A program made the translations under genes and the position numbers. 34,643 nt of DNA from Fimbriimonadaceae bacterium (GTDB taxonomy: Bacteria; Armatimonadota; Fimbriimonadia; Fimbriimonadales; Fimbriimonadaceae), in NCBI GenBank assembly GCA_023957775.1, contig JAMLGR010000022.1:1-34643 (forward strand), written 5' to 3'. Under the pieces are notes generated by a model. The model had not been told where the DNA came from and ran no database searches. It saw only the letters and a program-made list of their open reading frames with translations. This document shows positions 2,824-34,643 of the stretch, piece after piece (within the stretch, counting starts at the first letter, position 1; each line of letters starts with the position of its first letter).

Positions 2824-2851
2824 GATTCCCGATTCCCGATTCCCGGTTCCC
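2824..2851. repeat. Heptamer array (GATTCCC x3 + GGTTCCC)
   Basis: Three perfect GATTCCC words and one variant lie in a strict 7-bp register, starting 8 nt after the stop of the preceding gene and ending just upstream of the carA -10 candidate TATCCT (2863-2868). This is a member of the GA-NNNN-C heptamer family found throughout the window. Confidence 0.9.
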
Positions 2852-2883
2852 CTCCCAAATGGTATCCTCAGCGCCGGCAAACG

Positions 2884-3987
2884 TTGACACGCACACTCAT
2901 CCTGAGCGACGGGACGGTGATCGAGGGAAAGCCACTCGGCGCCGTCGGCCAGACGACCGGCGAAGTCGTCTTCAATACCGGCATGACGGGCTATCAGGAG
3001 ATCCTGACGGACCCGAGCTACGCCGGGCAAATCGTCCTTTTCACCTATCCCTTGATCGGCAACTACGGCATCAACGCCGACGATTTCGAGTCCGACAGAC
3101 TCCAGCCGGCCGGGATCATCGTGCGGGAGGCCTGCGAGACGCCGTCCAACTGGCGTTCCGCCAAATCGCTCCACCAGCTCCTCGACGAGCGGGGCGTGGT
3201 CGGCATCCAAGGGGTGGACACGCGCGCGATCACCAAGCGCATCCGCAGCGGCGGCGTCACCATGGGCGTGATCACGAGCGGGTCTCCGGACGAAGCCCTC
3301 GCCAAACTCCGCGCCGCCCGTCCGTACGACGAATCGGATTTCGTGTCGAGCGTCACCACGCGCATCCCTTACGCGTGGGGCTATGCCGGCCGCGAGTCGA
3401 TCGAAGACCCGAGCACATCGTTCAAGCACCGGCTGGTGGTCCTCGATTGCGGCCTCAAATTCAACATTCTCCGCCGGTTCGCCGCGGCGGGATGTCGTTC
3501 GATCGTGCTGCCTGCGACGACCCCCGCCGATGAGGTTCTCGCATGGAATCCCGACGGCATCCTGCTCTCGCCGGGGCCGGGCGACCCCAGCCGCCTCGAG
3601 CCCGTCATCGAGACCGTGCGCCAGCTCTTGGGGAAGAAGCCGATCTTTGGAATCTGCCTGGGGAACCAGATGCTGTGCCACGCGATCGGAGGCAAGACGT
3701 TCAAGCTCAAATTCGGGCACCGAGGTTCCAACCACCCCGTGAAAGACCTGCGCACCGGAACGGTGACGATCACATCGCAAAACCACGGGTACGCCGTCGA
3801 CCCGGACTCGCTCGAGGGAACGGGCGCCCAGGTCACGCAGCTTAACCTCAACGACGGGACCGTCGAAGGCATCGAGGTGCCCGAGCTGCGCGCGAGCAGC
3901 ATCCAGTACCACCCCGAAGCGGCACCCGGACCCTGGGACAGCCGACCCTACTTCCACCACTTCGTGGAAGAGATGGCGCGCGGGTAG
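2884..3987 (+). CDS. carA: Carbamoyl-phosphate synthase small (glutaminase) subunit
   Basis: CarA hydrolyses glutamine and channels ammonia to the large subunit for carbamoyl phosphate, the precursor of pyrimidines and arginine. The 367-residue product has the usual length. The N-terminal half carries the CarA signature (LSDGTVIEG, GEVVFNTGMTGYQEILTDPSY, GVDTRAITK). The C-terminal half is a class I amidotransferase with the nucleophilic Cys at about residue 258 in GICLGNQMLCHAIGG and the His/Glu pair in YHPEAAPGPWDS. The start is a TTG at 2884, the only start that fits the family N-terminus (TTG-ACA-CGC-ACA-CTC). A possible -10 (TATCCT, 2863-2868) lies 15 nt upstream, implying a leader of only about 9 nt. 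The carB genes follow after an intervening GH97 gene on the same strand. Confidence 0.97.
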   Translation: MTRTLILSDGTVIEGKPLGAVGQTTGEVVFNTGMTGYQEILTDPSYAGQIVLFTYPLIGNYGINADDFESDRLQPAGIIVREACETPSNWRSAKSLHQLLDERGVVGIQGVDTRAITKRIRSGGVTMGVITSGSPDEALAKLRAARPYDESDFVSSVTTRIPYAWGYAGRESIEDPSTSFKHRLVVLDCGLKFNILRRFAAAGCRSIVLPATTPADEVLAWNPDGILLSPGPGDPSRLEPVIETVRQLLGKKPIFGICLGNQMLCHAIGGKTFKLKFGHRGSNHPVKDLRTGTVTITSQNHGYAVDPDSLEGTGAQVTQLNLNDGTVEGIEVPELRASSIQYHPEAAPGPWDSRPYFHHFVEEMARG

Positions 3988-3991
3988 GGGC

Positions 3992-4026
3992 GGGAATCGG
4001 GAGCCGGGAATCGGGAATCGGGAATC
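3992..4026. repeat. Heptamer array (GGGAATC x4, GGGAGCC x1)
   Basis: Five in-register 7-bp words start 4 nt after the carA stop. They fill nearly the whole carA-GH97 gap and end 12 nt before the GH97 -10 hexamer, so they occupy the place where a -35 would be. Confidence 0.9.
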
Positions 4027-4038
4027 GGTGGGAGACAG

Positions 4039-4053
4039 TAACATCGATCCATG
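4039..4053 (+). promoter_or_regulatory. -10 element giving a leaderless start
   Basis: TAACAT at 4039-4044, then 6 nt, then ATG at 4051. No Shine-Dalgarno is present. The arrangement predicts transcription starting on the start codon of the GH97 gene, so that gene probably has its own promoter although it lies between carA and carB. Confidence 0.6.
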
Positions 4054-6012
4054 GGCATCGAGTGGGCGTTGATTCTCCCCGCCTTGCTGGCCGCTGGCAC
4101 CTTCCCGGGCACCGAACTGGTCTCCCCGAACGGCAACCTCAAGGTCCGCGTGAACTTGCCGGAACAAGCCACGTGGTCGCTCGCCGTCGGAGGGAAGGAA
4201 CGCCTCGGGCCCTGCCGATTGAGCCTGACTGTCAAAGGCTTCGGCGACCTCTTCGCCGGTGCGCGCGTGTTGGATCAGCGGCGAAGGACGGTCGACGAGC
4301 GGATTCCCGTGCTCTTTGGGAAGGCCTCCGAAGCGCGCAATCACTTCGAAGAGCTTCGGCTCCAGTTGGCGGGCGCGGGCGGGATGCGGGTCGACGTCGT
4401 GTTTCGGTGCTTCGACGACGCCGTGGCGTTTCGCTACGAGATACCCGAGCAACGCGAGTGGTCCTCGGTGACCGTGGCCGATGAGCGCTCCACTTTTGGG
4501 GTCCTCGATCGGCCGACCGCGTACGTCCAGTACCTGGAGAACTTCACCACGTCCCACGAGCATCCGATCGCGGCCGTCGCGTCGGACGCGATTCAGGCGG
4601 ACACGCTGCTCGACACCCCGCTGACCCTGCAGTGGAGCGACGGGACGTGCCTCTCCATCACCGAGGCGGCCCTGAGGCACTACGCGGGCATGTCGCTGAT
4701 GCGCAGACCCGGGCGCGCCCCCTGCGAACTCGCGAGCGAGCTTTCGCCCCGTCCCGATGGCGACAAGGTCGTGCGCGCACTCCCGATGGCCTCGCCCTGG
4801 AGGGTGGCGCTCGCGGGCGCCTCCGCGCGGGCCCTGCTCGAATCCCAGACCCTCTACTGCCTGAACGACCCATCGGAGATTGGCGACACGTCTTGGATCC
4901 AGCCGGGAAAGATGACCTGGTCGTGGTGGAACGGCTACCTGTACGACGCGCACCCAACCCCGCCGATCCTCGGGCTGGAGATGCAGAAGAAGACGATCGA
5001 CTTCTGCGCGGACAACGGCATCCTCTACCACGACGTGGTCGCCGACGAACGGGACCAGCCGTGGTACCGGCAAGTCCGCCCAGGGCTTTTCCCGGGACCC
5101 GGAACCGACGTGACGCAGGTGCGCGCCGATTTGGACCTGCCCGCCGTGCTGGCCTACGCGAAATCGCGGGGGGTTCGCCTGTGGACCTGGGTGCACCAGG
5201 GCGCCCTGAGGGGCCGGGTGGAGGAGGCCTTCGCCGCGTTCGAGAAAATGGGCTGGAGCGGGATGATGGTCGATTTCTTCGATCGGGACGACCAGGAGAC
5301 CGTCGAGTACGCCGAATCGATCCTCAAAGCGGCCGCCAAGCACCACATCCTCATTCATTTCCACGGCATGTACAAGCCCACAGGCTGGCAGCGCACGTTC
5401 CCGAATCTGATGAACCACGAGGGTTCCCGCAACCTCGAATACATGAAGTGGGGCGACACGTGTCCGCCCGAGCACACGCTGCGGGTGGCGTTCACCCGAC
5501 TGGTCGCGGGTCCGATGGACTACCACCTCGGAGGGTTCCGCTCGGTCCGCCGGGATCAGTTCCAACCGCACAACGTGGGGCCGAACGTCTTGGGAACGCG
5601 TTGCTTCAACCTCGCGCTCTATGTGTGCATCGACAACCCGACGCCGATGGTTGCGGACTACGCCGCGGCCTACCTGGGCCAGCCTGGCTTCGAGTTCGTG
5701 AAGGACGTGCCGACCACCTGGGATGAAACCCGCGTGCTGGCCGCGGATATCGGCGACGTGCTGGTCATGGCCCGCCGCAAGGGCCGCGCCTGGTACCTGG
5801 GAGCGATCGGCGCCAACGGCCCGCACGACCTCGATCTCGACCTGGGGTTTCTTGGTCCGGGCTCGTTCCACCTCGATTCGTGGCGAGACGGACCCGACAC
5901 CCCCAACGACCCCAACACCCTCGTGCGCGAGTCCCGAACCGTGCAGGGAAGCGGGCGGCTGAAGGTGCATCTCGCACCCGACGGCGGCTTCGTGGCGAAG
6001 ATTTCGCCGTAG
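4051..6012 (+). CDS. Glycoside hydrolase family 97 protein (alpha-glucosidase/alpha-galactosidase type)
   Basis: The 653-residue product has a signal peptide (MGIEWALILPALLAAGTFPG), so it is exported. The N-terminal beta-sandwich has the GH97 start SPNGNLKVRVN and DDAVAFRYEIP. The central barrel has PGKMTWSWWNGYLYD, GMMVDFFDRDDQE near residue 406 and NLMNHEGSRNLEYMKWG. A small C-terminal beta domain follows. Family knowledge: GH97 contains both inverting alpha-glucosidases (SusB type, calcium-dependent, catalytic Glu) and retaining alpha-galactosidases with an Asp nucleophile. The VDFFD segment lies where the retaining nucleophile is expected, but I cannot settle the mechanism by eye. Its place between carA and carB has no obvious metabolic logic. 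It has its own -10 hexamer and is flanked by heptamer arrays on both sides, which suggests insertion or rearrangement in a formerly contiguous carAB. Confidence 0.9.
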   Translation: MGIEWALILPALLAAGTFPGTELVSPNGNLKVRVNLPEQATWSLAVGGKERLGPCRLSLTVKGFGDLFAGARVLDQRRRTVDERIPVLFGKASEARNHFEELRLQLAGAGGMRVDVVFRCFDDAVAFRYEIPEQREWSSVTVADERSTFGVLDRPTAYVQYLENFTTSHEHPIAAVASDAIQADTLLDTPLTLQWSDGTCLSITEAALRHYAGMSLMRRPGRAPCELASELSPRPDGDKVVRALPMASPWRVALAGASARALLESQTLYCLNDPSEIGDTSWIQPGKMTWSWWNGYLYDAHPTPPILGLEMQKKTIDFCADNGILYHDVVADERDQPWYRQVRPGLFPGPGTDVTQVRADLDLPAVLAYAKSRGVRLWTWVHQGALRGRVEEAFAAFEKMGWSGMMVDFFDRDDQETVEYAESILKAAAKHHILIHFHGMYKPTGWQRTFPNLMNHEGSRNLEYMKWGDTCPPEHTLRVAFTRLVAGPMDYHLGGFRSVRRDQFQPHNVGPNVLGTRCFNLALYVCIDNPTPMVADYAAAYLGQPGFEFVKDVPTTWDETRVLAADIGDVLVMARRKGRAWYLGAIGANGPHDLDLDLGFLGPGSFHLDSWRDGPDTPNDPNTLVRESRTVQGSGRLKVHLAPDGGFVAKISP

Positions 6013-6015
6013 GAC

Positions 6016-6043
6016 GACCGACGACAAACGACCAACGACCAGC
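6016..6043. repeat. Heptamer array of four different in-register words
   Basis: GACCGAC, GACAAAC, GACCAAC and GACCAGC follow one another without spacing, 3 nt after the GH97 stop. All share GA-NNNN-C but none is identical to its neighbour. This shows that the frame rather than one sequence is conserved. Confidence 0.88.
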
Positions 6044-6090
6044 CGAAGCATGCGCGCCCGCGCCCGCATCTGTCACAATCTCTCCTTGGA

Positions 6091-7812
6091 ATGAAGGTCC
6101 TCGTGATCGGCAGCGGCCCCATCGTCATCGGACAAGCCGCCGAGTTCGATTACGCAGGCACCCAGGCGTGTCGCGCGTTGCGGGAAGAGGGCCACGAAGT
6201 CGTCCTGATCAACAGCAACCCCGCGACGATCATGACGGACTGGGAAATCTCCGACGCGCTCTACATCGAGCCCCTGACCCCCGAGTTCTGCGAACGCGTG
6301 ATCGAGCGCGAGCGTCCCGACGCCCTCCTTCCAACCTTGGGCGGCCAGACCGGCCTCAACCTCGCCACACAACTGTCGGACCGGGGAACGCTCGACAAGT
6401 TCAACGTCAAAGTCCTGGGCACGCCGCTCACCGCGATCAAGAAGGCGGAGGATCGAGAGCTGTTCCGCGCGCTGATGCGGGAGATCCGGGAGCCGGTGCC
6501 GGAGAGCTTCATCGTCGAGACGCCCGAGCAGCTCGAAGCGATCCTGCCGGTGATGGTCCCCGACGGCGACGGACGCGAGATCGAATTCCCCTACCCGCGC
6601 ATCGTCCGCCCGGCGTTCACCTTGGGCGGCACGGGCGGCGGCATCGCCAACACTCCCGAGGAGCTTTGGGAGATCGGCTTGAAGGGCCTGCAGCTCTCGA
6701 TGCGGAGCCAATTGATGGTGGAGCGCTCGCTCTTGGGGTGGAAAGAGGTCGAGTACGAGGTGATGCGCGACGGCGCGGGCAACGTGATCACCGTCTGCAA
6801 CATGGAGAACCTCGACCCGATGGGCGTCCACACCGGCGACTCCATCGTCGTCGCTCCCAGCCAGACCCTGAGCGACATCGAGTACCACATGTTGCGCACC
6901 GCGAGCCTGAAGATCATCTCCGCGCTCGGCATCGAAGGCGGCTGCAACGTGCAGCTCGCGGTGAACCCCGACTCTTTCGACTACTACATCATCGAAGTGA
7001 ACCCGCGCGTGTCGCGCTCCTCGGCCCTGGCGAGCAAGGCCACGGGCTATCCCATCGCCCGGGTCGCGGCGAAGATCGCCTCGGGCAAAACGCTCGACGA
7101 GATCGCCAACCAGGTCACGGGGACGACCCAGGCGTGCTTCGAGCCCGCGCTCGACTACTGCGTCGTGAAGATTCCGCGATGGCCTTTCGACAAGTTCACC
7201 ACGGGCGATCGTTCGCTGTTCACCCAGATGAAGGCGACCGGCGAAGTGATGGCGATCGATCGCACGTTCGAGTCGGCCCTGCTGAAGGCGATCCGCGGCC
7301 TCGAAGTGCGTTCGAAGGACCTCCGGCACGTTCGGTTCCAGGGAGGGCCCGAGGCCGAGCCGATGACCGACGAAGCCCTGCGCGCGGCGATCCAGAAGCC
7401 CACGGACGAACGCCTGTGGGCGCTTGCGGAAGGGCTGCGGCGCGGATGGGGCATTGCCGAGGTCCATCGCCTGAGCCGGGTCGACAACTGGTTCCTCGAG
7501 AAGATCTGGAATCTGGTGGCGCTGGAGATGCGCATGGTCCGCGCCGGCACGACGCGCAGCGCGCGGGGCCGCCAGGGAATCGAGGTTTCGAACCTGGTCT
7601 ACGACGCGTTTCTCCTGGGTTTCTCCTCGCCCACGATTCTCTCCCTGCTCGGGGCCGCGACCCAAGACGCGTTCGGCGAGTTTGTGAGGAAGGAGGTCGA
7701 TCGCCTGAAGGTGCAACCGGTGTTCAAGATGGTCGACACGTGCGCGGGCGAGTTCGAGTCGAAGACCCCTTACTACTACGGCACCTTCGAGGAGGAAGAC
7801 GATGTGGTTTGA
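6091..7812 (+). CDS. carB1: Carbamoyl-phosphate synthase large subunit, N-terminal half
   Basis: This half makes carboxyphosphate and then carbamate from bicarbonate, ATP and ammonia. The 573 residues correspond to the first ATP-grasp unit plus the oligomerisation domain of a normal CarB of about 1,070 residues. Visible motifs are [24 protein letters not shown] (pre-ATP-grasp), [33 protein letters not shown], the ATP-grasp segment ending [22 protein letters not shown], and the helical linker domain from about residue 400. It ends with a natural stop at the domain boundary. The partner half starts 87 bp downstream on the same strand. CACAAT (6074-6079) is a weak -10 candidate 11 nt before the ATG. 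Split CarB is known in some archaea and in Aquifex-type bacteria, so this need not be a broken gene. Confidence 0.95.
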
Positions 7813-7815
7813 AGG

Positions 7816-7843
7816 GTTTGTGGTTTGTGGTTTGTGGTTTGTG
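7816..7843. repeat. Heptamer array (GTTTGTG x4)
   Basis: Four identical 7-bp words begin 3 nt after the carB1 stop, inside the carB1-carB2 gap. The word fits the frame G-NNNN-T with G instead of C in the last place. Its reverse complement CACAAAC recurs after the biotin carboxylase stop near 17993. Confidence 0.9.
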
Positions 7844-7844
7844 G

Positions 7845-7897: not shown

Positions 7898-7899
7898 CG

Positions 7900-9606: not shown

Positions 9607-9713
9607 GGCGGCGTCCCGGGTGCCGCGCCCGCTGGACGGGCGTGCTCACGCTCAAAGCCGGGAATGAGGCGGCGTCCCGGGTGCCACGCCCGCTGGACGG
9701 GCGTGCTCGCTCC
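9592..9713. repeat. 61-bp tandem duplication across the carB2 stop, with REP-like hairpin
   Basis: Bases 9592-9652 and 9653-9713 are near-identical copies. Each holds the last four codons and stop of carB2 and then a palindrome (CACGCCCG, loop CTGGA, CGGGCGTG; the first copy has a G where the second has A). The same hairpin with loop CTTGA occurs at 12102-12122. As stable stem-loops directly after the stop, they may terminate or stabilise the carB mRNA. The gap to the next gene (9607-9740) contains nothing else. Confidence 0.9.
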
Positions 9714-9740
9714 CGCTGAGTTTTCGTGGCACCCCCTCTG

Positions 9741-11968: not shown

Positions 11969-12017
11969 CGCGGATTGGATCGAGAGGATGCGCTCATGTG
12001 CCGAACAAGTTCGGCGG

Positions 12018-12238
12018 GGGCAAGGCGACGAGCAAGCTCGCGCACTCCCAGAACGAAGGACGAAGGACGAAGGACGAAGGACCAACAACCAATAGGGGTG
12101 CCACGCCCGCTTGACGGGCGTGCGGCGTGGCGTGTCGAATCCGCGGCGGACTCGCGGCAAGCCGCTCGGGGCAAGGCGACGAGCAAGCTCGCGCACTCCC
12201 AGAACGAAGGACGAAGGACGAAGGACCAACAACCAGAC
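12018..12238. repeat. Non-coding repeat cluster: two REP-like arms, two GAAGGAC arrays, one hairpin
   Basis: The 284-bp gap 11955-12238 has no gene. Two direct repeats (from 12018 and from 12171) each start with the REP arm containing GCGACGAGCAAGCTCGCGC, followed by heptamers GAAGGAC (four at 12055-12082, three at 12206-12226) and CAACAACCA. Between them are the hairpin CACGCCCG-CTTGA-CGGGCGTG (12102-12122) and, at about 12150-12169, an inverted copy of the middle of the 136-bp repeat unit (CTCGCGGCAAGCCGCTCGGG). The gap therefore combines three repeat families. Confidence 0.85.
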
Positions 12239-13818: not shown

Positions 13819-13894
13819 AGGGGTGGGCGCGGGTTTCGCGCAGAGGGGTAGAGGCGCACGGAGTGAAGGCACTGGTTGCCCGAAGGGTGCCGCG

Positions 13895-17986: not shown

Positions 17987-18006
17987 CCAAACCACAAACC
18001 ACAAAC
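17987..18006. repeat. Short heptamer array (CACAAAC type)
   Basis: Two full CACAAAC words (17993-17999, 18000-18006) are preceded by a degenerate CCCAAAC (17986-17992), immediately after the biotin carboxylase stop. On the minus strand this reads as GTTTGTG words directly after the pilin terminator hairpin, giving it a U-rich tail. Confidence 0.8.
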
Positions 18007-18007
18007 C

Positions 18008-19055: not shown

Positions 19056-19093
19056 CGTTGGTCACGACAAACGACAAACGACCAACGACGCTC
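19056..19093 (-). terminator. Terminator-like hairpin built from heptamers after the aspartase/fumarase gene
   Basis: Right after the stop, minus-strand words GAGCGTC, GTTGGTC, GTTTGTC and GTTTGTC lie in 7-bp register, followed by an inverted GACCAAC. CGTTGGTC pairs with GACCAACG around a 16-nt loop made of two heptamers, and ATTTT follows. This has the form of a weak intrinsic terminator. On the plus strand the words read GACAAAC, GACAAAC, GACCAAC, GACGCTC (19066-19093). Confidence 0.65.
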
Positions 19094-20982: not shown

Positions 20983-21827
20983 ACACCGTCCGCGTCGCGT
21001 CGGTTCAGGCGGCGGTCGTCTACAACGATCCGGACGCCAACGCGGCCTACGCCGTCGGCCGCCTGCGCGAGCTGGCGACCCAGGGGGTGCAGCTCGCCGT
21101 TTTTCCCGAGGCGTTCCTCACCGGCTACTGCGTGGACTCCGCGGAGGAGGCGCGCCGCATCGCGTTTCCCGTGCAGATCGAGGGTGACGTCCTGGTTCGC
21201 GGTCCCGAGGCCTTCGAGACGATCCGGCGCGAAGCCGCCGCCCTCCGGATGCACGTCGTTTTTGGATTCGCCGCCCGGGACGCGCGCGGGGTGTTCAACG
21301 CCGCCGCGCTGATCGAGCCGGACGGCCGCGCCCGGGTGTACGTCAAGACGCACCTTCCCGAGCTGGGGCTGGACAAGCACGTCGTGGCCGGCGATTCGCT
21401 GCCGGTGTTCGACACGGCGCTTGGGAAGATCGGGATCCTGATCTGCTTCGACCTCAGGCCGCCGGAGCCGATGCGCGTGCTGGCGCTCGAAGGCGCGGAC
21501 CTGGTGGTCCTTCCGACGAACTGGCCCGACGGCGCGCAGATCTCGGCTCAGGTGCTCAGCGTCGCGCGCGCCGTCGAGAACCGCGTCGCCTTCGTCTCCT
21601 GCAACCGCTTCGCGCCGGAGAACGGCACGACGTTCATCGGCATGAGCAGCATCATCGACCCGCTGGGGAACGTGCTGGCCATGGCCGGAGGCGGGGAAGA
21701 GGTGCTCGTCGCCGATCTCGACCTGGACCTCTCCCGCCAGAAGCGGGTCGCCACGATCCCCGGCCAGTATGAGTGGACCGTCTTCGAGTCCCGCCGCCCA
21801 GAGCTTTACTCACCGCTGGTGCGGTGA
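20979..21827 (+). CDS. Carbon-nitrogen hydrolase (nitrilase superfamily amidase)
   Basis: The 282-residue product has the catalytic triad of the nitrilase superfamily: Glu44 in FPEAFLTGY, Lys123 in VKTHLPELG and Cys156 in [10 protein letters not shown]. These enzymes hydrolyse or transfer amide/nitrile C-N bonds. The substrate cannot be read from sequence; omega-amidase, N-carbamoyl amidase and deaminated-glutathione amidase are among the family options. The GTG start overlaps the accB stop by 4 bases, so it is translated with accB. There is no evident functional link to fatty-acid synthesis. A pair of heptamers begins 5 nt after the stop. Confidence 0.9.
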
Positions 21828-21832
21828 GTCTC

Positions 21833-21846
21833 GTTTATCGTCTATC
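21833..21846. repeat. Two heptamers between convergent genes
   Basis: GTTTATC and GTCTATC lie in register in the 17-bp gap between the amidase stop and the opposing gene. The second word overlaps that gene's stop: on the minus strand it gives TGA followed in frame by TAG, so the array supplies tandem stop codons. Confidence 0.75.
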
Positions 21847-22543: not shown

Positions 22544-22580
22544 ACACCGTTGGTACGGGCGGAAGGGCGCGGGGGTTACC

Positions 22581-22660
22581 GGGAGTCGTCTATCGTCTAT
22601 CGTTTGTCGTTTGTCGTTTGTCGGGGAGAGTTCCGGACGACAAACGATAGGCGATCAACG
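22581..22660. repeat. Two opposed heptamer arrays forming an inverted repeat
   Basis: Plus-strand words at 22581-22622 are GGGAGTC, GTCTATC, GTCTATC, GTTTGTC, GTTTGTC, GTTTGTC: three different words in exact 7-bp register. After a 15-nt spacer, the opposite strand carries GTTTGTC, GCCTATC and GTTGATC next to the mqnC stop. The two arms can pair over about 13 bases (GTCTATCGTTTGTC against GACAAACGATAGGC). This is the richest heptamer locus in the window. Confidence 0.88.
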
Positions 22661-22661
22661 A

Positions 22662-23744
22662 TCAAACGACTTCATACCGCGTGTTGCGGCGTTTGGGCAC
22701 GTAGCCCGCTCCTTCGATGAGCCGCTCGAACTCGTGCGCGTCCAGGATGAACTTGTTGCCGGCGGCGGACACGACGTTCTCCTCGATCATCACCGATCCG
22801 AAATCATTGGCGCCGTAGCCGAGCGCGAGTTGGGCGATCTTGGGGCCCTGCGTGAGGATCGACACCTGGAAGTTGTCGATGTTGTCGAGGAACAGCCTCG
22901 ACACCGCCACAGTGCGCAGATAATCGAAGCCCGACGCCTTGTGCGGGATGGGGAGCTGGGTGTCCTCGGGTTGGAAGTTCCAGGAGATGAACGCGCGGAA
23001 CGGCTCGCACTCGTCCTGCAGATCCCGAATCCGCCCCAGGTGCTCGACGCGGTCTTCGAGCGTCTCCACATGGCCGAACATCATCGACGCCGTGCTGCGG
23101 ATGCCGAGCGCCGAGGCCGTGCGCATACACGCCAGCCACTCGTCGGTCGTGTCCTTGTACGGCGCGATGATCTTGCGCACGCGGTCCACCAAGATCTCGC
23201 CGCCGGCGCCGGGGATCGAGTGCAATCCCGCGGCCTTGAGTCGCGCAAGGCACTCGTCGAGGCGAAGTTTGGAGATGTGCGCGATGTAGATGATCTCTGC
23301 GGGGCTCAACGCGTGCAGGATCACCTCGGGGAACTGCTCCTTGATCTTCGCGAAGATGTTCTCGTAGTAGTCGATCTTCAGCTTCGGGTTGAGGCCGCCT
23401 TGGAACAGGATCTCCGTGCCACCCTTGTCCACGGTGTCGCGCACCTTGTCGAGGATGCTCTCGTCCGAGTGCACGTACCCCTCGTCGTCCCCCGGCACCC
23501 GGTAGAACGCGCAGAACTTGCACCGCACCCAGCACACGTTCGTGTAGTTGAGGATGCGCCCGACGATGTAGGTGACCGTGTTGCCCGGCACCCGCCGCTG
23601 GCGCTGCACGTTCGCAAGCGTCGCCAGTTCGTTGAGGTTCGGGTGCCGATACAGTGCCATGGCATCGGCCGCATCCAGTCGTTCGCCCGCAAACACCTTG
23701 TCGGCGATGGAATCGATCGTGGAAGGGGGAGCGACGGTGGACAT
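22662..23744 (-). CDS. mqnC: Radical SAM cyclic dehypoxanthinyl futalosine synthase MqnC
   Basis: Catalyses the radical cyclisation that makes cyclic dehypoxanthine futalosine in the futalosine route to menaquinone. The 360-residue product has the radical SAM cluster motif Cys71-x3-Cys75-x2-Cys78 (NYTNVCWVRCKFCAFYR) and MqnC-type segments GGTEILFQGGLNPKL, LHSIPGAGGEIL, TASMMFGHVET and FISWNFQPEDTQLP. The closest alternative is the paralogue MqnE (aminofutalosine synthase); the Q-G-G-L-N-P and W-x-F-Q-P-E-x-T motifs favour MqnC. TAAAAT (23759-23754) lies 9 nt before the ATG. No other mqn gene is in the window. The last two codons overlap the neighbouring heptamer array. Confidence 0.9.
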   Translation of the reverse strand: MSTVAPPSTIDSIADKVFAGERLDAADAMALYRHPNLNELATLANVQRQRRVPGNTVTYIVGRILNYTNVCWVRCKFCAFYRVPGDDEGYVHSDESILDKVRDTVDKGGTEILFQGGLNPKLKIDYYENIFAKIKEQFPEVILHALSPAEIIYIAHISKLRLDECLARLKAAGLHSIPGAGGEILVDRVRKIIAPYKDTTDEWLACMRTASALGIRSTASMMFGHVETLEDRVEHLGRIRDLQDECEPFRAFISWNFQPEDTQLPIPHKASGFDYLRTVAVSRLFLDNIDNFQVSILTQGPKIAQLALGYGANDFGSVMIEENVVSAAGNKFILDAHEFERLIEGAGYVPKRRNTRYEVV

Positions 23745-25587: not shown

Positions 25588-25588
25588 A

Positions 25589-27585: not shown

Positions 27586-27652
27586 GGAGAGGATTATGGC
27601 AGGGAACGGGAGTCGGGAATCGGGAATCGGGAACGGTAACATCCCTGCTGTG
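27583..27652. promoter_or_regulatory. Divergent leaderless promoter pair (lysA / dxr) around a heptamer array
   Basis: Minus strand: CATAAT (27598-27593), 7 nt, ATG of lysA at 27585. Plus strand: TAACAT (27637-27642), 7 nt, GTG of dxr at 27650. The whole space between the two -10 hexamers is filled by the heptamer array at 27608-27635, so both -35 regions lie inside it. This is the one clear case of an array between two start codons rather than next to a stop. Confidence 0.65.
27608..27635. repeat. Heptamer array in the lysA-dxr divergent promoter
   Basis: GGGAGTC, GGGAATC, GGGAATC and GGGAACG are in 7-bp register, preceded by a 6-bp degenerate copy. They occupy the -35 positions of both divergent promoters. 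Confidence 0.88.
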
Positions 27653-28759: not shown

Positions 28760-28767
28760 GACCCCCA

Positions 28768-28880
28768 TTGAGCCCGTTACGTGAAACCCTCCGCGCCTCT
28801 GCGCCTCTGCGTGAGACCCCCATTGCGCCCTTTGCGTGAAACCCATTGCGCTTCTGCGTGAAACCCTCCGCGCCTCGCCA
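28768..28880. repeat. Imperfect tandem repeat in the dxr-rseP gap
   Basis: The gap 28760-28920 has no gene. It holds four imperfect copies of a short unit built on GCGTGAAACCC, CATTGCGC and CCTCCGCGCCTCTGCG (GTGAAACCC or a variant at 28781, 28811, 28836 and 28858). Similar sequences occur between genes in many unrelated bacteria and give spurious A-E-A-Q-R-R peptides; that comparison is from memory. After it, GAAGGAG (28901-28907) lies 13 nt before the rseP ATG, far for a ribosome binding site. Confidence 0.75.
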
Positions 28881-28920
28881 CCCGAAACCAAATGCCCCTC
28901 GAAGGAGTTATGAGTAGAGC

Positions 28921-30009
28921 ATGCTGATCGTTCTCACCGCCGTCACGTTCCTTGTGATGATCTCCCTGCTGGTCGCCGCCCACGAGTACGGCCATTTCCT
29001 GTTCGCACGCCTGTGCGGGATGGGGGTCGAGGAGTTCTCAATCGGGTTTGGCAAGGGGAAGTGGGTCTACAAGGTCAAAGACGGCACCGAGTTCACGGTT
29101 CGCCCGCTTCCGCTGGGAGGCTTCGTCCGGATCAAGGGCATGGTGCCCGAGGAGGACGGCAGCGAAGTGGACATCCCCGGCGGCTTCTACAGCAAGCCCC
29201 CTGCGCAGCGCCTGCTCGTGCTGTTCGCCGGGCCGTTGTTCAGCATCCTGGCGGGCGTGCTGATCCTGATCGGCCTGTTCCTCAGCGTTCCGCGGCATCC
29301 GCTCAACGAGCCGGTGCTCGGAATGGTGCTCGAGGGCAAGCCCGCGGCGCAGGCCGGACTCCAAGAGGGCGACCGCATCCTCTCCGTGGACGGACAGCCG
29401 GTGACGACTTGGTACCAGCTCGTCTCCTCCGTGCGCGACAAGCCGGATCAGAAGCTGGCGTTCGTCGTGGACCGCGCCGGCAAGCGCTTCGAGACGTCGG
29501 TGAAGACCTATGTGAACGACAAAGAGACGCCGGTCCTCGGTCCCGACTTGGAGCCCACCAACGAGCGGAAGAAGCAGGCGATGATCGGCGCGGCTCCCTC
29601 GGCGCGTCGGAGCACGGTGCCCGAAGCCGTCGGCGAGGCCGTCGTGTTCCCGTTCGAGATGGCGGGGGGCATGGTGCATGCATTCACCTCGACCAAACGC
29701 TTCAAGGAGGAAATCGGCGGCCCGATCTCGATCGTCACCGCGACGAGCGAGCAGGTGCAGCGCGGTGTGGCCGACGTGATCCTGTTGGCGGGCCTGCTGA
29801 GCATCTCGCTGGGCATCTTCAACCTCCTGCCCATCCCCGGCTTCCTCGACGGCGGGCAGATGGTCGTGGCGTTCATGGAGCTGCTGCGCGGAGGCCGCCG
29901 CCTGAGCATGCGGACGCAGTCCTACCTCTCCGGTCTCGGCTTCACGATACTGGTCGTGCTGATCGTCAGCGTGTTCGCCGTCGATATTGGAAGGTTGGGA
30001 GGCAGGTAG
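28921..30009 (+). CDS. rseP: RIP metalloprotease RseP (site-2 protease)
   Basis: Membrane zinc protease that cleaves anti-sigma factors or other membrane proteins within the bilayer. The 362-residue product has HEYGH at residues 21-25 in the first membrane helix, the conserved beta segment FSIGFGKGKW and LPLGGFVRIKGM, a single PDZ domain at about residues 130-205 (GMVLEGKPAAQAGLQEGDRI), and the third zinc ligand in NLLPIPGFLDGGQM. At least three membrane helices are visible. Its position after dxr is the usual one. The ATG at 28921 gives the standard N-terminus; the start signal is unclear (SD 13 nt away, TATGAG 6 nt away). A heptamer array begins 3 nt after the stop. Confidence 0.96.
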   Translation: MLIVLTAVTFLVMISLLVAAHEYGHFLFARLCGMGVEEFSIGFGKGKWVYKVKDGTEFTVRPLPLGGFVRIKGMVPEEDGSEVDIPGGFYSKPPAQRLLVLFAGPLFSILAGVLILIGLFLSVPRHPLNEPVLGMVLEGKPAAQAGLQEGDRILSVDGQPVTTWYQLVSSVRDKPDQKLAFVVDRAGKRFETSVKTYVNDKETPVLGPDLEPTNERKKQAMIGAAPSARRSTVPEAVGEAVVFPFEMAGGMVHAFTSTKRFKEEIGGPISIVTATSEQVQRGVADVILLAGLLSISLGIFNLLPIPGFLDGGQMVVAFMELLRGGRRLSMRTQSYLSGLGFTILVVLIVSVFAVDIGRLGGR

Positions 30010-30012
30010 CCC

Positions 30013-30040
30013 GCCTCACGCCTCACGCTTCACGCTTCAC
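30013..30040. repeat. Heptamer array (GCCTCAC x2, GCTTCAC x2)
   Basis: Four 7-bp words in register begin 3 nt after the rseP stop and run to 2 nt before the -10-like CACAAT (30043-30048) of the next gene. On the minus strand they read GTGAAGC and GTGAGGC, a GC-ended variant of the G-NNNN-TC frame. Confidence 0.85.
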
Positions 30041-30042
30041 GC

Positions 30043-30057
30043 CACAATAACACCATG
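30043..30057 (+). promoter_or_regulatory. -10-like element, leaderless start of the TauE-type gene
   Basis: CACAAT at 30043-30048, then 6 nt, then ATG at 30055, without Shine-Dalgarno. The hexamer is weaker than others here but the spacing is the same. Confidence 0.5.
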
Positions 30058-30414: not shown

Positions 30415-30422
30415 GAGGCGGG

Positions 30423-30437
30423 CATAATGAACCCATG
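30423..30437 (+). promoter_or_regulatory. -10 element giving a leaderless start
   Basis: CATAAT at 30423-30428, 6 nt, ATG at 30435, inside the 20-bp gap after the TauE-type gene. Confidence 0.6.
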
Positions 30438-31430: not shown

Positions 31431-31436
31431 GAGCCC

Positions 31437-31508
31437 GACAAACGACAAAGGGAATCGGGAGACGGGAATCGGGAATCGGGAATCGGGAGTCGGCGGGAGA
31501 CGGGAATC
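31437..31508. repeat. Mixed heptamer array (GACAAAC then GGGAATC words)
   Basis: The array begins 6 nt after the oxidoreductase stop with GACAAAC and then switches to GGGAATC, GGGAGAC, GGGAATC (x3) and GGGAGTC. It continues with degenerate copies to 31508, a few bases before the TTGACA of the next promoter. Two word types of opposite orientation meet in one array, which links them as one family. Confidence 0.9.
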
Positions 31509-31518
31509 GGGGGTGGGG

Positions 31519-31557
31519 TTGACATTACTCAGTGAAGGTAATAAAATACCTCTCATG
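31519..31557 (+). promoter_or_regulatory. Perfect sigma-70-type promoter with leaderless ATG
   Basis: TTGACA (31519-31524), a 17-bp spacer, TAAAAT (31542-31547), 7 nt, then ATG at 31555. This is the only complete consensus promoter in the window and it fixes the geometry used to read the others. Its A/T content is clearly higher than that of its surroundings. Confidence 0.85.
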
Positions 31558-31950
31558 AGTACATCGGGCCAGTCGGGCGTTATTGCTTCTTATCGGCAGT
31601 TGGACGTTTGGAACCTGTCGATGGACCTTGCTGTGTCGGTCTACGAAATCACAAAGTTACTTCCCAAGGATGAGCAGTTTGGGCTTTGCAGCCAGATGCA
31701 ACGGGCGGCGGTGTCGATACCCTCGAATATCGCCGAGGGCAATGCTCGGGGGTCTCGAAAGGAGTACGCGCGCTTCATCTCGATCGCCATCGGGAGTCTG
31801 AGCGAACTCACAACGGTCCTCCAACTTGCACGCGTGCTCGACCTCCTCCCAGAGGACCCCGCTCTCACAGAAAAGTGCAGAAGAGTCGCCGAGATGCTCA
31901 TCCGCCTTCGCCAAGCCCTAGAAAAACCCCCCACCAACTCCCGTCAATAA
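31555..31950 (+). CDS. Four-helix bundle protein (23S rRNA intervening-sequence protein family)
   Basis: The 131-residue product matches the small S23/IVS-type four-helix bundle family: SYRQLDVWNLSMDLAVSVYEIT, FGLCSQMQRAAVSIPSNIAEGNARGSRKEYARFISIAIGSLSELTTVLQLA. First seen in ORFs inside intervening sequences of 23S rRNA genes, the family is now known mostly from free-standing genes and has an unestablished role. It forms pentamers and has been proposed to interact with nucleic acids. Codon use is less GC-rich than in the neighbours and its promoter is a perfect consensus, consistent with recent acquisition. It ends convergently with the next gene, overlapping by 7 bp. Confidence 0.9.
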   Translation: MSTSGQSGVIASYRQLDVWNLSMDLAVSVYEITKLLPKDEQFGLCSQMQRAAVSIPSNIAEGNARGSRKEYARFISIAIGSLSELTTVLQLARVLDLLPEDPALTEKCRRVAEMLIRLRQALEKPPTNSRQ

Positions 31951-34577
31951 CCCCCGACTCCCGACTCCCGTCCCCCCCGACTCCCGACTCCCGATTCCCG
32001 TCCCCCCCGATTCCCGATTCCCGACTCCCGTCCCCCCGATTCCCGATTCCCGACTCCCGTCCCCCTCACCTCCAGCACCGCGGTCTGCACCGTGTCGCCG
32101 ACCGTGAGGCGGACGAGGAACTCTCCGGTGTCGATGCCGCCGCCCCTTCGTCCCGCGCCGGCGCGGCGGAGGTTCCAGTTCACCGTGTTGATCCCCGCGT
32201 CCTTGCTGGCGCGCGGGGTGGCGATCACGTTGCCCTCGATGTCGAGGATCTCGACCTTCACGTCGCCCGCGGGCACGGTCTTGAGATAGTAGGAGATCGA
32301 GGCGCCGTAGGTCGGATTCGGCGCGGTGTACCGCTTCATGCCGTTGAACGCGTCGAACATGTTCTGGTAGAAGCTATACGCCAGCGCGGGGTCGGGGTCG
32401 AACAGGTGGACGTCCTCCTCCCGCACCTTCGCCGTGAGCTGGCGCAGGGGCGAGATGTTCGTCACGAACACGCCGCGGCCGTGCGTGCCGACCACGAGGT
32501 CGCCGTCGCGCGGATGGATCACCAGGTCTTGGCACGCGGTGGTGGGCATCCCGTTCATGAACCGGTTCCAGCTCTTGCCGCCATCGAGCGACACGTGAAG
32601 GCCCGTCTCGGTGCCCACCACGAGGAGGTCGGGGTTGATCGCATCCTCCCGGATCACGGAGACCTCCTCGTGAGGCAGATTCCCCGCGATCGAGCTCCAC
32701 GTCTTCCCAAAGTCGGTCGTCTTGTACACGTACGGCGTGGTGTCGTCCTCGCGGAATCCGGTGATCGTCACGTACGCGGTCCCCGCGGCGTGCGAGGAGG
32801 CGACCACGCGGCTGATCCACCACTCCTTCGGCGCGTCCGGCAGATTCTCGTTCACCTGCGTCCAGTTCACGCCGCCGTCCTGCGACACCCACACGTTGCC
32901 GTCGTCGGTCCCGGCCCAAAGCACGCCGATCTTCACCGGCGACTCGTCGATCGTCGTGATCGTGCAGTGGGGAACGTTCCCCTTGATCTTCTCCTCGTGC
33001 TGGGTCGTGAGGTCGGGGCTGACCGTCGCCCACGTGTTCCCGCGGTCCACGGACCGGTACAGCTTGTTGCCTGCCCAGTAGAGGGTCTTCGCGTTGTGCG
33101 GCGAGAGGAAGAAGGGCGACATCCAGTTCGCTCGCTGCCCCTGCTCGCGCGGCCGAATCGAGCGGCTCGTGCGCGTCTTCGCGTCGAACCGGGTGATGCT
33201 GCCGAACTGGGACGACGTGTAGATCGTGTCGGGGTCCTCGGGGTCGGCGATCGAGTAGAACCCGTCGCCGCCGCTGATCGCGATCCAGTCCGAGTTGGCG
33301 ATGCCCGAAGGCACGCGCGAGCGCGACGGGCCGCGCCAGGCGCCGTTGTCCTGCAGTCCGCCCATCACGTTGTAGGGCACGGCCATGTCCACGCTGATCG
33401 CGTAGAACTGCGGAATGGGAAGGTTGTCGATGAACTCCCACGTCTCGCACCCGTCGTAGGTCTCGTACAGGCCGCCGTCGTTGCCGAGGAACTGGTGCTT
33501 GCTGTTCGCCGGGTCGATCCAGAGGGCGTGGTGGTCCACGTGGATCTGGCGGTCGATCCCGCCCTTGAACGTCTTGCCGCCATCGTCGCTGCGCGAGCAG
33601 TTCACGCCCACGACCGTGACGTTCTCGGGATCGTTGGGGTCGACGAAGATCTTGCCGTAGTAGGACCCTCCGGGAACGTTCGAGGTGCCGGGGCGCGACC
33701 AGTTTTTGCCGGCATCGTCCGTGCGCCACACCCCGATGCCGCGCGGCGTCGTCGTGATGATCGTCGCGTAGACCGTCGAGGGCTTCAGCTTGGGAATGGC
33801 CAACCCGATGCGTCCGAGGTCGCCCTCCGGCAGCCCTTGGGTGAGCTTTGTCCACGTCTTGCCCGCATCGCTGGTTTTGTAGATTGCGGAGCCGGGTCCG
33901 GTCTCCCGGATGTTCCACGCCCTGCGGAGGCGGTCCATCGAGGCCGCGTAGAGCACCTTGGAGTCGGCAGGGTTCGCGACGATGTCGATGAACCCGGTCG
34001 TGTCGTTCTCCCCCTCGAGAACGCGCGTCCAGGTCACGCCGCCGTCGGTGGTTTTGTAGATGCCGCGCTCGCCACCGGACCGGTAGAGCGGGCCTTGCGC
34101 CGCGACGTACACCGTGTTGGGGTTCTTGGGATCGATGGCGATACGCCCGATGTGCCAACTGTCCCGCAGGCCCATGTTCAGCCACGTCTTGCCGCCGTCG
34201 ACCGACTTGTACACGCCGTCGCCGTAGTGGCTGGACCGTTGGTTGTTGTTTTCGCCGGTGCCGACCCAGATCGTGTCGGGATCGCTGGGCGCGATCGCCA
34301 CATCGCCGATCGAGATGGTGGGATTGCGGTCGAAGATCGGTGTCCACGTCGTGCAGTTGTTGGTGGTCTTCCACAGGCCGCCGTTCGACGCCGCGACGTA
34401 CACGGTTCCCGGTTGGGCGGGGTGGGCCTCGATGTCCACCACGCGTCCCCCGGTCACGGCGGGCCCCAGGTTTCGGAACTCGAACGGCTTGAGGAGGTCG
34501 GCGTCCGAAGGACCCGACTGCGCAACGACGAAGGCGCTAGCCAAAGCCAGCGCCAGGGTGGACACGGTTCTTCCCAT
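31944..34577 (-). CDS. Secreted Asp-box (BNR/sortilin-like) beta-propeller protein
   Basis: The 877-residue product has a signal peptide (MGRTVSTLALALASAFVVAQ) and at least nine Asp-box turns of the form S-x-D-x-G-x-T-W, for example SVDGGKTWLNM, TTDGGVTWTRV, TSDAGKTWTKL, SQDGGVNWTQV and SLDGGKSWNRF. This is the arrangement of sortilin/VPS10-like and sialidase-type propellers (probably two propellers), followed by a small beta domain (GDVKVEILDIEGNVIATPRA). No sialidase active-site set was recognised, so enzymatic activity is not claimed. Such proteins are abundant and exported in Armatimonadota, Planctomycetes and Bacteroidetes. The natural C-terminus appears to be near TAVLEV. The last ~38 residues are a translated heptamer array. 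An alternative start is the GTG at 34580. Confidence 0.88.
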   Translation of the reverse strand: MGRTVSTLALALASAFVVAQSGPSDADLLKPFEFRNLGPAVTGGRVVDIEAHPAQPGTVYVAASNGGLWKTTNNCTTWTPIFDRNPTISIGDVAIAPSDPDTIWVGTGENNNQRSSHYGDGVYKSVDGGKTWLNMGLRDSWHIGRIAIDPKNPNTVYVAAQGPLYRSGGERGIYKTTDGGVTWTRVLEGENDTTGFIDIVANPADSKVLYAASMDRLRRAWNIRETGPGSAIYKTSDAGKTWTKLTQGLPEGDLGRIGLAIPKLKPSTVYATIITTTPRGIGVWRTDDAGKNWSRPGTSNVPGGSYYGKIFVDPNDPENVTVVGVNCSRSDDGGKTFKGGIDRQIHVDHHALWIDPANSKHQFLGNDGGLYETYDGCETWEFIDNLPIPQFYAISVDMAVPYNVMGGLQDNGAWRGPSRSRVPSGIANSDWIAISGGDGFYSIADPEDPDTIYTSSQFGSITRFDAKTRTSRSIRPREQGQRANWMSPFFLSPHNAKTLYWAGNKLYRSVDRGNTWATVSPDLTTQHEEKIKGNVPHCTITTIDESPVKIGVLWAGTDDGNVWVSQDGGVNWTQVNENLPDAPKEWWISRVVASSHAAGTAYVTITGFREDDTTPYVYKTTDFGKTWSSIAGNLPHEEVSVIREDAINPDLLVVGTETGLHVSLDGGKSWNRFMNGMPTTACQDLVIHPRDGDLVVGTHGRGVFVTNISPLRQLTAKVREEDVHLFDPDPALAYSFYQNMFDAFNGMKRYTAPNPTYGASISYYLKTVPAGDVKVEILDIEGNVIATPRASKDAGINTVNWNLRRAGAGRRGGGIDTGEFLVRLTVGDTVQTAVLEVRGTGVGNRESGGRESGIGNRGGRESGVGSRGGRESGVGGY
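31951..32060. repeat. Heptamer array with ~30-bp higher-order period, inside the 3' end of the Asp-box gene
   Basis: GACTCCC and GATTCCC words in groups of three to four are separated by CGTCCCCCC-type spacers at about 31969, 31999, 32029 and 32058, giving a superimposed period of 29-30 bp. The opposing gene reads through the whole array before its stop, adding a tail of repeated R-E-S-G and N-R motifs. Confidence 0.9.
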
Positions 34578-34622
34578 CACAGGGACTACTTCGGCGGAGC
34601 GGGAGCGGGTTCCTTTGGGGGC

Positions 34623-34643
34623 GTTGGTCGTCTATCGTTGGTC
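34623..34643. repeat. Heptamer array cut by the window edge (GTTGGTC, GTCTATC, GTTGGTC)
   Basis: Three words of two kinds in 7-bp register fill the last 21 bases. It lies upstream of the start of the Asp-box gene and may sit behind the stop of a gene outside the window. Confidence 0.85.

What the first reader, a model, noticed from the sequence alone, without database searches (positions are those of the whole stretch)
2824..34643. A window-wide family of intergenic heptamers sharing the frame G-NNNN-TC, with different words joined in register
Arrays of 7-bp words occur in nearly every larger intergenic gap (2824, 3992, 6016, 7816, 12055, 12206, 17987, 19057, 21833, 22581, 27608, 30013, 31437, 31951, 34623). 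At first sight they are unrelated microsatellites. Written on one strand, nearly all read G + four variable bases + TC: cores GGAA, GGAG, TCTA, TTTG, TTGG, TTTA, TCGG, CTGG, TTGA, CCTA, TCCT. Side variants end in TG (GTTTGTG) or GC (GTGAAGC). Unlike words follow each other without losing the 7-bp register: 22581-22622 has three kinds and 6016-6043 has four kinds in four words. Slippage of one sequence does not explain this; a conserved frame with exchangeable cores does. Heptanucleotide tandem repeats (STRR) are known in cyanobacteria, but a shared frame with mixed words is not something I know to be described.
Basis: partly seen in the sequence, partly recalled or inferred. Interest (0 to 1): 0.85.

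Follow-up and report, generated by a model that had tools for sequence, protein, structure and literature searches.

The report
Seven-base repeat arrays behind stop codons
This bacterium carries hundreds of short arrays of seven-base words, often placed directly behind the ends of genes; such repeats are known in other bacteria, but here several word families each keep some letters fixed and vary others, which simple copying slips do not readily explain.

Summary
The arrays are real and far above chance: in the window GNNNNTC x3 occurs 22 times against 1.4 expected; genome-wide x4 occurs 241 times against 5 for the reversed pattern. Seven is by far the strongest period.

B (GTTTGTC, GTTGGTC, GTCTATC...) keeps G1, T6, C7 and varies the core; A (GGGAATC, GGGAGTC...) keeps GGGA--C; C, D and E have other fixed columns; related genomes use other words. 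D/E joins keep register; A/B joins are few (3 of 8 in register).

A stronger rule is placement: in 49 of 82 tandem gaps the array starts within 7 nt of the upstream stop codon (15 expected). Most opposite-strand neighbours converge. Modal length is 31-32 nt.

GGGAATC repeats with similar placement, convergent pairs and four-unit preference were published for Xanthomonas (Rehm 2015) as quadruplex formers. Family B has no G-tracts yet lies behind stops, so quadruplexes cannot be the general reason. Two arrays of a related genus were absent in all 11 relatives examined at each site. I judge this a new variant of known heptanucleotide repeats: young, locally built arrays in the tolerant slot behind genes. 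Why columns are fixed stays open.

The parts
2822..2851 (-). family A array (GGGAATC x3 + GGGAACC), 6 nt after the stop of the gene ending at 2815
3991..4028 (+). family A array (GGGAATC/GGGAGCC), 3 nt after the stop of carA (2884-3987)
6013..6041 (-). family B array, four different words (GTCGGTC, GTTTGTC, GTTGGTC, GCTGGTC), directly after the stop of the GH97 gene (4051-6012)
7815..7844 (+). family C array (GTTTGTG x4), 2 nt after the stop of the CarB N-terminal half, before the CarB C-terminal half
12050..12092 (-). family D array (GTCCTTC x4), inside a dispersed repeat unit
12201..12235 (-). family D array (GTCCTTC x3), second copy of the same dispersed unit, 3 nt after a stop
17988..18007 (-). 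family C array (GTTTGTG), 2 nt after the stop of a biotin carboxylase-type gene (16492-17985), convergent gap
19064..19089 (-). family B array (GTTGGTC, GTTTGTC x2), 2 nt after the stop of a fumarase-like lyase gene (19092-20489, minus)
21826..21846 (+). short family B array (GAGTCTC, GTTTATC, GTCTATC); its first word overlaps the end of the gene ending at 21827
22581..22623 (+). family B array with one family A word first (GGGAGTC GTCTATC x2 GTTTGTC x3); far arm of an inverted pair
22635..22662 (-). family B array (GTTGATC, GCCTATC, GTTTGTC) at the stop of a CofH/MqnC-like radical SAM gene; convergent partner of 22581-22623; RNA of the minus strand (22575-22665) folds at -32.2 kcal/mol, z -4.1
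27607..27633 (+). family A array (GGGAGTC, GGGAATC x2); my gene caller ran a minus-strand ORF (26251-27687) over it, so its setting is uncertain
30012..30042 (-). family F array (GTGAGGC/GTGAAGC; GCCTCAC/GCTTCAC on +), 2 nt after the stop of an M50 peptidase gene (28921-30009)
31436..31511 (+). two minus-strand GTTTGTC-type words followed by plus-strand family A words (GGGAATC, GGGAGAC, GGGAGTC), a divergent junction, 5 nt after the stop of a GFO/IDH/MocA gene
31950..32065 (-). family A arrays in a ~30-bp higher-order repeat (GGGAATC/GGGAGTC/GGGGGAC); lies in the 3' end of a called minus-strand ORF (31944-34565) next to the convergent ORF ending at 31950
34623..34643 (+). family B array (GTTGGTC GTCTATC GTTGGTC) running off the window end

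Best explanation
These are heptanucleotide tandem arrays that arise recently and repeatedly in particular lineages. Each is built unit by unit at its own site, most likely by repeated 7-nt misalignment of a DNA 3' end during synthesis (slippage). They survive mainly in the slot directly behind a stop codon, where an insertion breaks neither the gene before nor the start signals of the gene after. Within a word family, some columns must match for the next realignment to work and stay fixed, while the remaining columns drift among a few letters. Shown: the period, the fixed columns, the stop-proximal placement, the preference for convergent neighbours, and species-specific presence at two sites tested in a related genus. 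Inferred: slippage as the building process, the anchor meaning of the fixed columns, and tolerance as the reason for the site.
For: Seven is by far the strongest period. No clear excess of shared four-word strings between A arrays: 125 sharing pairs observed, 104.7 +- 12.5 with words shuffled within arrays, 157 +- 33 with a Markov null; B three-word strings 8 against 5.5 +- 2.3 and 11.2 +- 4.7. This argues against block copying and for local unit-wise growth. Fixed versus variable columns are the same across independent arrays (A mismatch rates .01 .01 .02 .08 .46 .38 .03; B 0 .06 .15 .45 .27 .02 .01). Stop-proximal start in 49 of 82 tandem gaps against 15.1 if uniform, and 29 of 47 against 7.7 even with 40 bp reserved before the start codon. 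The same preference in G084 with other words: 4 of 11 tandem gaps against 0.3. Two G084 arrays are absent behind the same gene in 11 of 11 relatives examined at each site. Long arrays up to 169 nt with local higher-order repeats. Reverse transcriptase domain RVT_1 not found in array-rich drafts G084, G098, G131, G136.
Against: Plain slippage predicts falling copy numbers. Family A peaks at four words (gap runs 2: 8, 3: 6, 4: 26, 5: 9), and 31-32 nt is the modal length overall (34 of 167). Slippage does not by itself predict the small vocabulary of A, the convergent neighbours (10 of 10 among longer runs within 80 bp), or the strand bias of B and E behind stops (11 of 12 and 9 of 9 with the G/T-rich strand in sense). 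Fixed columns could equally be protein or RNA contacts. The same main word, GGGAATC, in distant Xanthomonas (PMC4692102) is unexplained.
Confidence: 0.45

Rival explanations
1. Binding arrays: each heptad is read by one protein (or RNA-binding) subunit that binds cooperatively to contiguous heptads, as the ribbon-helix-helix ParB/Omega protein does on plasmid pSM19035. The fixed columns are the contacts; register and about four units are needed for cooperativity.
For: Column-specific conservation and the small vocabulary of family A; modal length about four heptads; mostly direct or convergent arrangement. In the pSM19035 system four or more contiguous WATCACW heptads are needed, in direct or inverted order (PMC9499535 passages).
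Against: Six word families in one genome; vocabularies change between genera of one family; arrays are absent at two sites in relatives; many lie between genes that look like one operon. A divergent junction exists at 31436 in the window and two wider divergent pairs elsewhere. Omega_Repress (PF07764) found in 0 of 21 genomes, but the control was silent too, so that is uninformative.
Confidence: 0.23
2. G-quadruplex elements: arrays act by folding into four-stranded G structures in DNA or mRNA, which need four G-tracts, hence four units (the reading of Rehm et al. 2015).
For: Family A is the GGGAATC repeat whose oligonucleotides fold as quadruplexes in vitro (PMC4692102); family A peaks at four words; family E also has G3 tracts.
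Against: Family B has no G-tract, yet starts <=7 nt behind stops in 9 of 16 tandem gaps (3.7 expected) and shows the strand bias that Rehm describes, while family A here shows none (31 of 57 outward, 16 of 29 sense at stops). Lengths of 31-32 nt are also common in B, C and D.
Confidence: 0.1
3. RNA-level 3'-end element: the arrays, directly behind the stop, act in the mRNA (shield the 3' side, form hairpins as inverted pairs, or modulate re-initiation or termination).
For: Stop-proximal placement; G/T-rich strand in sense behind stops in 56 of 78; inverted pair at 22581-22662 folds at z -4.1. Xanthomonas repeats are mostly transcribed (PMC4692102).
Against: Arrays sit in four consecutive gaps around carA, GH97 and the two CarB halves, probably one operon, so a terminator role is unlikely there; convergent pairs are a minority of arrays (10 pairs); no array at two orthologous gene ends in relatives.
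Confidence: 0.13
4. Telomerase-like addition by a reverse transcriptase at broken ends, giving heptads with the G/T strand extended outward and convergent fusions.
For: Outward orientation overall (94 of 145, p=0.00045); convergent neighbours 10 of 10 among longer runs; B arrays end in GTTTGTC in 15 of 23 and begin with it in 4 of 23.
Against: No RVT_1 match in four of the most array-rich genomes of the family, which are drafts. Orientation is absent in A and weak in C and D. It does not explain the position next to stops. Divergent junctions exist.
Confidence: 0.03

Closest known systems
GGGAATC / GGGNATC repeats of Xanthomonas and GGGGA(C/T)T repeats of Nostoc (Rehm et al. 2015, PMC4692102; abstract, sections 10, 13, 16 and passages read)
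   Same: Same main word as family A; period 7; mostly intergenic; very near or overlapping stop codons; convergent inverted pairs (Xanthomonas); preference for four units; heterogeneous units with conserved and variable positions; length and sequence variable between relatives.
   Different: Here four further word families without three-G tracts (B, C, D, F), and E with them, lie in the same place; B has a conserved G----TC frame. Family A here lacks their strand bias; its variable columns are 5 and 6 (they report positions 1-4 and 6 conserved). [quoted passage not shown] the two G084 sites tested here are not shared with the 11 relatives examined at each.
TAACTGA direct repeats of Beggiatoaceae, cyanobacteria, Bacteroidetes (MacGregor 2015, PMC4679880; abstract and sections 3, 8, 10 read)
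   Different: One favoured word, related heptamers rarely repeated in the main genome; mostly just upstream of start codons there. Here mixed vocabularies, mostly behind stop codons.
Long simple sequence repeats with 7-nt units (Mrazek et al. 2007, not read; known through PMC4679880 and PMC4692102)
   Same: Seven is the most abundant unit length among longer units in most genomes; polymerase slippage proposed.
   Different: Fixed columns, a multi-word vocabulary and stop anchoring are not mentioned in the parts I read about it.
parS heptads (WATCACW) of plasmid pSM19035 bound by RHH ParB/Omega (PMC9499535, passages read)
   Same: Contiguous heptads with fixed and degenerate positions, direct or inverted, four or more needed.
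   Different: Plasmid centromere overlapping promoters, one word type, a known protein; here hundreds of chromosomal sites and no protein identified.

Membership tests
Heptanucleotide simple sequence repeats (SSR/LSSR) | Tandem 7-nt units beyond chance, period 7 dominant | tested here: met
Heptanucleotide simple sequence repeats (SSR/LSSR) | Copy-number polymorphism by whole units between strains | not testable with these tools
   One genome per species is held; no strain pair. Rehm report length variation between Xcc and Xac (PMC4692102).
Heptanucleotide simple sequence repeats (SSR/LSSR) | Variation among units random in position | tested here: not met
   Mismatches concentrate in specific columns in each of families A-E (chi-square p from 3e-10 to 3e-168; F not tested). 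Randomness is not a formal requirement of the class but is what simple slippage plus mutation predicts.
GGGNATC quadruplex repeats (Rehm et al. 2015) | G-tract heptamer units, at least four tracts | tested here: met
   Family A: 69 of 167 arrays, many with four or more GGGA words. Not met by B, C, D, F.
GGGNATC quadruplex repeats (Rehm et al. 2015) | Near the stop on the sense strand, or upstream of the start on the antisense strand | tested here: inconclusive
   Stop-proximal yes (A: 20 of 31 tandem gaps <=7 nt, 5.2 expected); strand bias absent in A (16 of 29 sense), present in B and E.
GGGNATC quadruplex repeats (Rehm et al. 2015) | Folds as a quadruplex | not testable with these tools
   Published CD data for (GGGAATC)3GGG and (GGGAATC)4 only (PMC4692102).
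TAACTGA-type repeats (MacGregor 2015) | Single favoured heptamer just upstream of start codons | tested here: not met
   Several word families; 5 of 82 tandem-gap arrays lie within 7 nt of a start against 49 behind a stop.
RHH-ParB/Omega heptad sites | Cognate Omega-type RHH protein | tested here: inconclusive
   PF07764: 0 of 21 genomes, control silent.
RHH-ParB/Omega heptad sites | Four or more contiguous heptads, direct or inverted | tested here: inconclusive
   Modal length 31-32 nt and 10 of 10 convergent opposite-strand neighbours among longer runs, but shorter arrays and a divergent junction at 31436 also occur. A resemblance only.

The most novel reading that the evidence does not exclude
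Bacteria possess a directional, sequence-directed process that writes seven-base units one after another at gene ends. Fixed columns act as its recognition register, and a small exchangeable set of letters fills the rest. The G/T-rich strand tends to be extended away from the gene, and two such extensions can meet as convergent arrays: a telomere-like unit addition without a recognisable reverse transcriptase, with a vocabulary that is reset in each lineage.
Probability: 0.08. Interest if true: 0.88.

Novelty: new variant of a known kind. Interest (0 to 1): 0.52.

Why it matters
The standing explanations of bacterial heptamer repeats are polymerase slippage and G-quadruplexes. One genome with several word families lets both be tested against each other. 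A family without G-tracts has the same site preference, so quadruplexes are not the general cause. Column-specific variation is not what random mutation of slipped copies predicts. If a protein or a special synthesis process reads the register, it could be widespread: arrays of family B words occur in records that I assign by title to at least fifteen bacterial phyla, a third of them in ORFs by a rough call (28 of 84). It also gives genome annotators a reason to expect repeat DNA directly behind stop codons.

Tried and rejected
One frame for all words: rejected, because fixed columns differ by family and by genome.

Chance: rejected.

Block copying of arrays between sites: no clear excess of shared multi-word strings. 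The exception is the D arrays at 12050 and 12201, which ride on a dispersed repeat.

Reverse transcriptase / telomerase-like origin: no RVT_1 match in array-rich G084, G098, G131, G136; matches in 20 of 85 family genomes, among them array-rich G000, G122, G127 and, weakly, G085.

Orientation rule for all families: the first sample of 1.23 Mb gave 60 of 88 outward in all and 20 of 31 for A; the larger sample gave 31 of 57 for A, so I dropped the claim for A. Cross-phylum orientation is not significant (24 of 38, p=0.14), though 13 of those 38 lie within 10 nt of a stop and 1 within 10 nt of a start.

Convergent-only rule: one search found 10 of 10, but it needed runs of two words (three for B). 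The window itself has a shorter divergent junction at 31436, and one search has two divergent pairs 114 and 126 bp apart.

Closed vocabulary: clear for A; B is looser (14 of 20 distinct words occur in one array only).

Array causing the CarB split: rejected. In the listing many family relatives have a separate N-half ORF of similar size, and most order-level relatives an open frame of about 1,100 codons.

Omega-type RHH protein: no match, but the control was silent too.

Limits: my gene caller is a home-made hexamer model. Its first version chose antisense ORFs and was replaced. Start codons may be wrong, and 27607-27633 and 31950-32065 were counted as 'in CDS' because a called ORF runs over them. 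Four-word preference is clear for A only; in B, C, D, E the run counts are small. Detection by lag-7 identity misses short and very mixed arrays.
Full report
Observation. The listed arrays are at the stated positions. Three consecutive GNNNNTC words occur 22 times in the window against 1.40 expected from 100 dinucleotide shuffles, none of which reached 22. In the host genome (3.51 Mb, 27 contigs; window = contig 22) four consecutive words occur 118 times on one strand and 123 on the other, against 2 and 3 for the reversed pattern. In 291 genomes of the phylum the pattern is uneven: 185 have at least one match, a few have many (G131 249, G000 241, G136 166, G071 129), the two other members of G136's genus have 4 and 5, and in some genomes the reversed control is the frequent one.

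Sampling. Arrays were detected without assuming a word, as runs of identity at lag 7. Lag 7 gives 167 arrays; lags 5, 6, 8, 9, 10, 11, 12 and 13 give 3, 20, 9, 46, 4, 3, 24 and 4. 20 of 167 lie mostly in called coding sequence, some perhaps through over-extended gene calls. In the first sample gaps were 8.5 percent of the DNA and held 89 of 106 arrays.

Word families. Six families account for 165 of 167 arrays: A GGGAATC-type 69, C GTTTGTG-type 31, B GTTTGTC-type 24, E GGGCCTT-type 18, D GTCCTTC/G-type 17, F GTGAGGC-type 6. Mismatch rates between adjacent words, column by column, are: A .01 .01 .02 .08 .46 .38 .03; B 0 .06 .15 .45 .27 .02 .01; C 0 .03 .05 .22 .04 .11 .02; D 0 .12 .33 .14 .06 .01 .35; E .24 .01 .07 .09 .22 .03 .03 (F not tested). 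So each family has fixed and free columns, the same ones in arrays at different loci. G----TC as a frame with free core is right for B only.

Vocabulary. In A, GGGAATC occurs in 63 arrays, GGGAGTC in 42, GGGAGAC in 20, GGGAAAC in 11, GGGGGAC in 10, GGGACTC in 7, GGGAACC in 6, GGGAGGC in 4. Of 34 distinct words among 516, 19 occur in one array only, 10 of them one step from a common word, and several of these come from arrays read out of phase. B is looser: five common words, but 14 of 20 distinct words occur in one array only (91 words in all). A arrays do not clearly share four-word strings more than shuffled ones do (125 against 104.7 +- 12.5; Markov 157 +- 33), so they are probably built locally and not copied as blocks.

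Register between families. D and E words follow each other in register (e.g. C4 169050, C4 84884, C3 4477; one constant spacing, 13 nt, in 5 of 5 cases, which is two units less the one-base offset between my D and E word starts). A/B junctions on one strand were found 8 times, 3 at exactly 7 nt. In G084 (same family, another genus) register-keeping is more striking: long arrays drift through many words, e.g. 116730-116990 and 9636-9739 of its contig 1.

Placement. In tandem gaps 49 of 82 arrays start no more than 7 nt behind the upstream stop codon; 15.1 are expected if position in the gap were uniform; 5 lie within 7 nt of the start. Reserving 40 or 60 bp before the start codon for expression signals leaves 29 of 47 against 7.7 and 22 of 35 against 7.5. 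Each of the six families shows the excess, F with only three cases. In the window 8 of 10 arrays in tandem gaps begin 0-6 nt behind a stop. Ten window genes next to arrays were checked with Pfam; all ten match, and several match a C-terminal domain that ends close to the stop (GH97_C to residue 651 of 653, FumaraseC_C to 459 of 465, CofH_C to 359 of 360), so those stops are real. Arrays lie in four consecutive gaps around carA, a GH97 gene and the two CarB halves, which speaks against a terminator role there. In G084, 4 of 11 tandem-gap arrays are stop-proximal against 0.3 expected, and three more lie 4 nt or less from, or overlapping, a stop in other gaps. 35 of those 84 arrays have more than one word, counting end words added by the looser G....TC rule.

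Orientation and length. The G/T-rich strand points away from the nearest gene in 94 of 145 gap arrays (p 0.00045), strongly in E (15 of 16) and B (18 of 23), not in A (31 of 57), C (16 of 27) or D (9 of 16); F 4 of 5. Neighbouring word runs on opposite strands within 80 bp are convergent in 10 of 10 cases (at least two words, three for B). Against this, the window has a shorter divergent junction at the start of the array 31436-31511 (two minus-strand B words, then A). The listing of lag-7 arrays within 150 bp in the first sample had 6 convergent and 2 divergent pairs, the latter 114 and 126 bp apart, one of them on either side of what looks by eye like a tRNA gene. Modal array length is 31-32 nt (34 of 167; A 14, B 7, C 7, D 5, F 1, E 0), and A peaks at four words. 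The convergent pair at 22581-22662 can form a strong hairpin (-32.2 kcal/mol, z -4.1).

Turnover. For two stop-proximal arrays of G084 the region in front was matched strongly in 17 and 15 of 19 other genomes of the genus. Loci were returned for the 11 best each, and none of these 22 has a heptad array in the 230 nt behind the stop (one stretch is shorter). The arrays are therefore probably young at these sites, and vocabularies differ between genera.

Known work. Rehm et al. 2015 (PMC4692102; abstract, sections 10, 13, 16 and passages) describe GGGAATC repeats in Xanthomonas and GGGGA(C/T)T repeats in Nostoc: intergenic, near or over stop codons on the sense strand, antisense upstream of starts, 70 and 75 convergent pairs in two Xanthomonas genomes, four units preferred, quadruplex folding in vitro, function open. 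Family A and the placement rule are thus known. MacGregor 2015 (PMC4679880; abstract, sections 3, 8, 10) describes TAACTGA heptamers, notes heptamers mixed with them in Microcystis, and cites Mrazek 2007 (not read) for seven as the most abundant unit and for slippage. Passages of PMC9499535 describe plasmid parS heptads that need four or more contiguous units. The listings of seven searches showed no paper on several heptamer families with fixed columns in one genome; the library is open-access only.

Interpretation. The quadruplex reading cannot be general, since family B has no G-tracts and has the site preference, the strand bias and the common length. A reverse transcriptase is unlikely to be needed, since array-rich G084, G098, G131 and G136 have no RVT_1 match, though they are drafts and other array-rich genomes do have one. 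Plain slippage explains the period, the local growth, the long arrays and the turnover, but not the fixed columns, the small vocabulary of A, the four-unit peak or the preference for convergence. A heptad-reading binder explains those but not the many word families or the rapid change. I commit to slippage-like unit-wise growth in the tolerant slot behind stop codons, with fixed columns as a realignment register, at 0.45; a binding array is the main rival at 0.23. The step from fixed columns to realignment register is inference only.

Noticed in passing
6091-7812 and 7900-9606 (+): CarB is split into an N-half ORF (573 aa) and a C-half ORF (568 aa). In several family relatives the N half is also a separate ORF with the C half elsewhere, while most order-level relatives show one open frame of about 1,100 codons.
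   Followed up: partly
8, 12027, 12178, 13990, 14126, 14269, 14405, 14537, 14673 (+): A dispersed repeat containing GACGAGCAAGCTCGCGCACTCC: 9 copies in the window, 30 in 2.03 Mb of the genome. Two copies carry the D arrays; six lie in a ~136-bp tandem block at 13894-14703.
   Followed up: partly
9683 and 12100 (+): A second dispersed element, GCCACGCCCG-loop-CGGGCGTG (partly an inverted repeat), 100 pattern matches over both strands in 2.03 Mb.
   Followed up: no
28788-28873: Repeats of the type TGCGCCTCTGCGTGAAACCCAT (22 nt), similar stretches in long gaps of other contigs.
   Followed up: no
family B arrays of the 2.03 Mb sample: Polarity: the last word on the G/T strand is GTTTGTC in 15 of 23 arrays, the first word in 4 of 23; no such polarity was evident by eye in the B arrays of other phyla.
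   Followed up: partly
G000:C21:15548-16177: One reverse transcriptase domain (RVT_1, E 1.6e-39, open frame 518 aa) in the host genome; type not determined.
   Followed up: no
G084 contig 1, 116730-116990 (L279:16730-16990): A 261-nt array that drifts through many heptamers (GCTTTCT, GCCTTCT, GCTCGCG, GTTCTCG, GTTCCCG) without losing register.
   Followed up: partly
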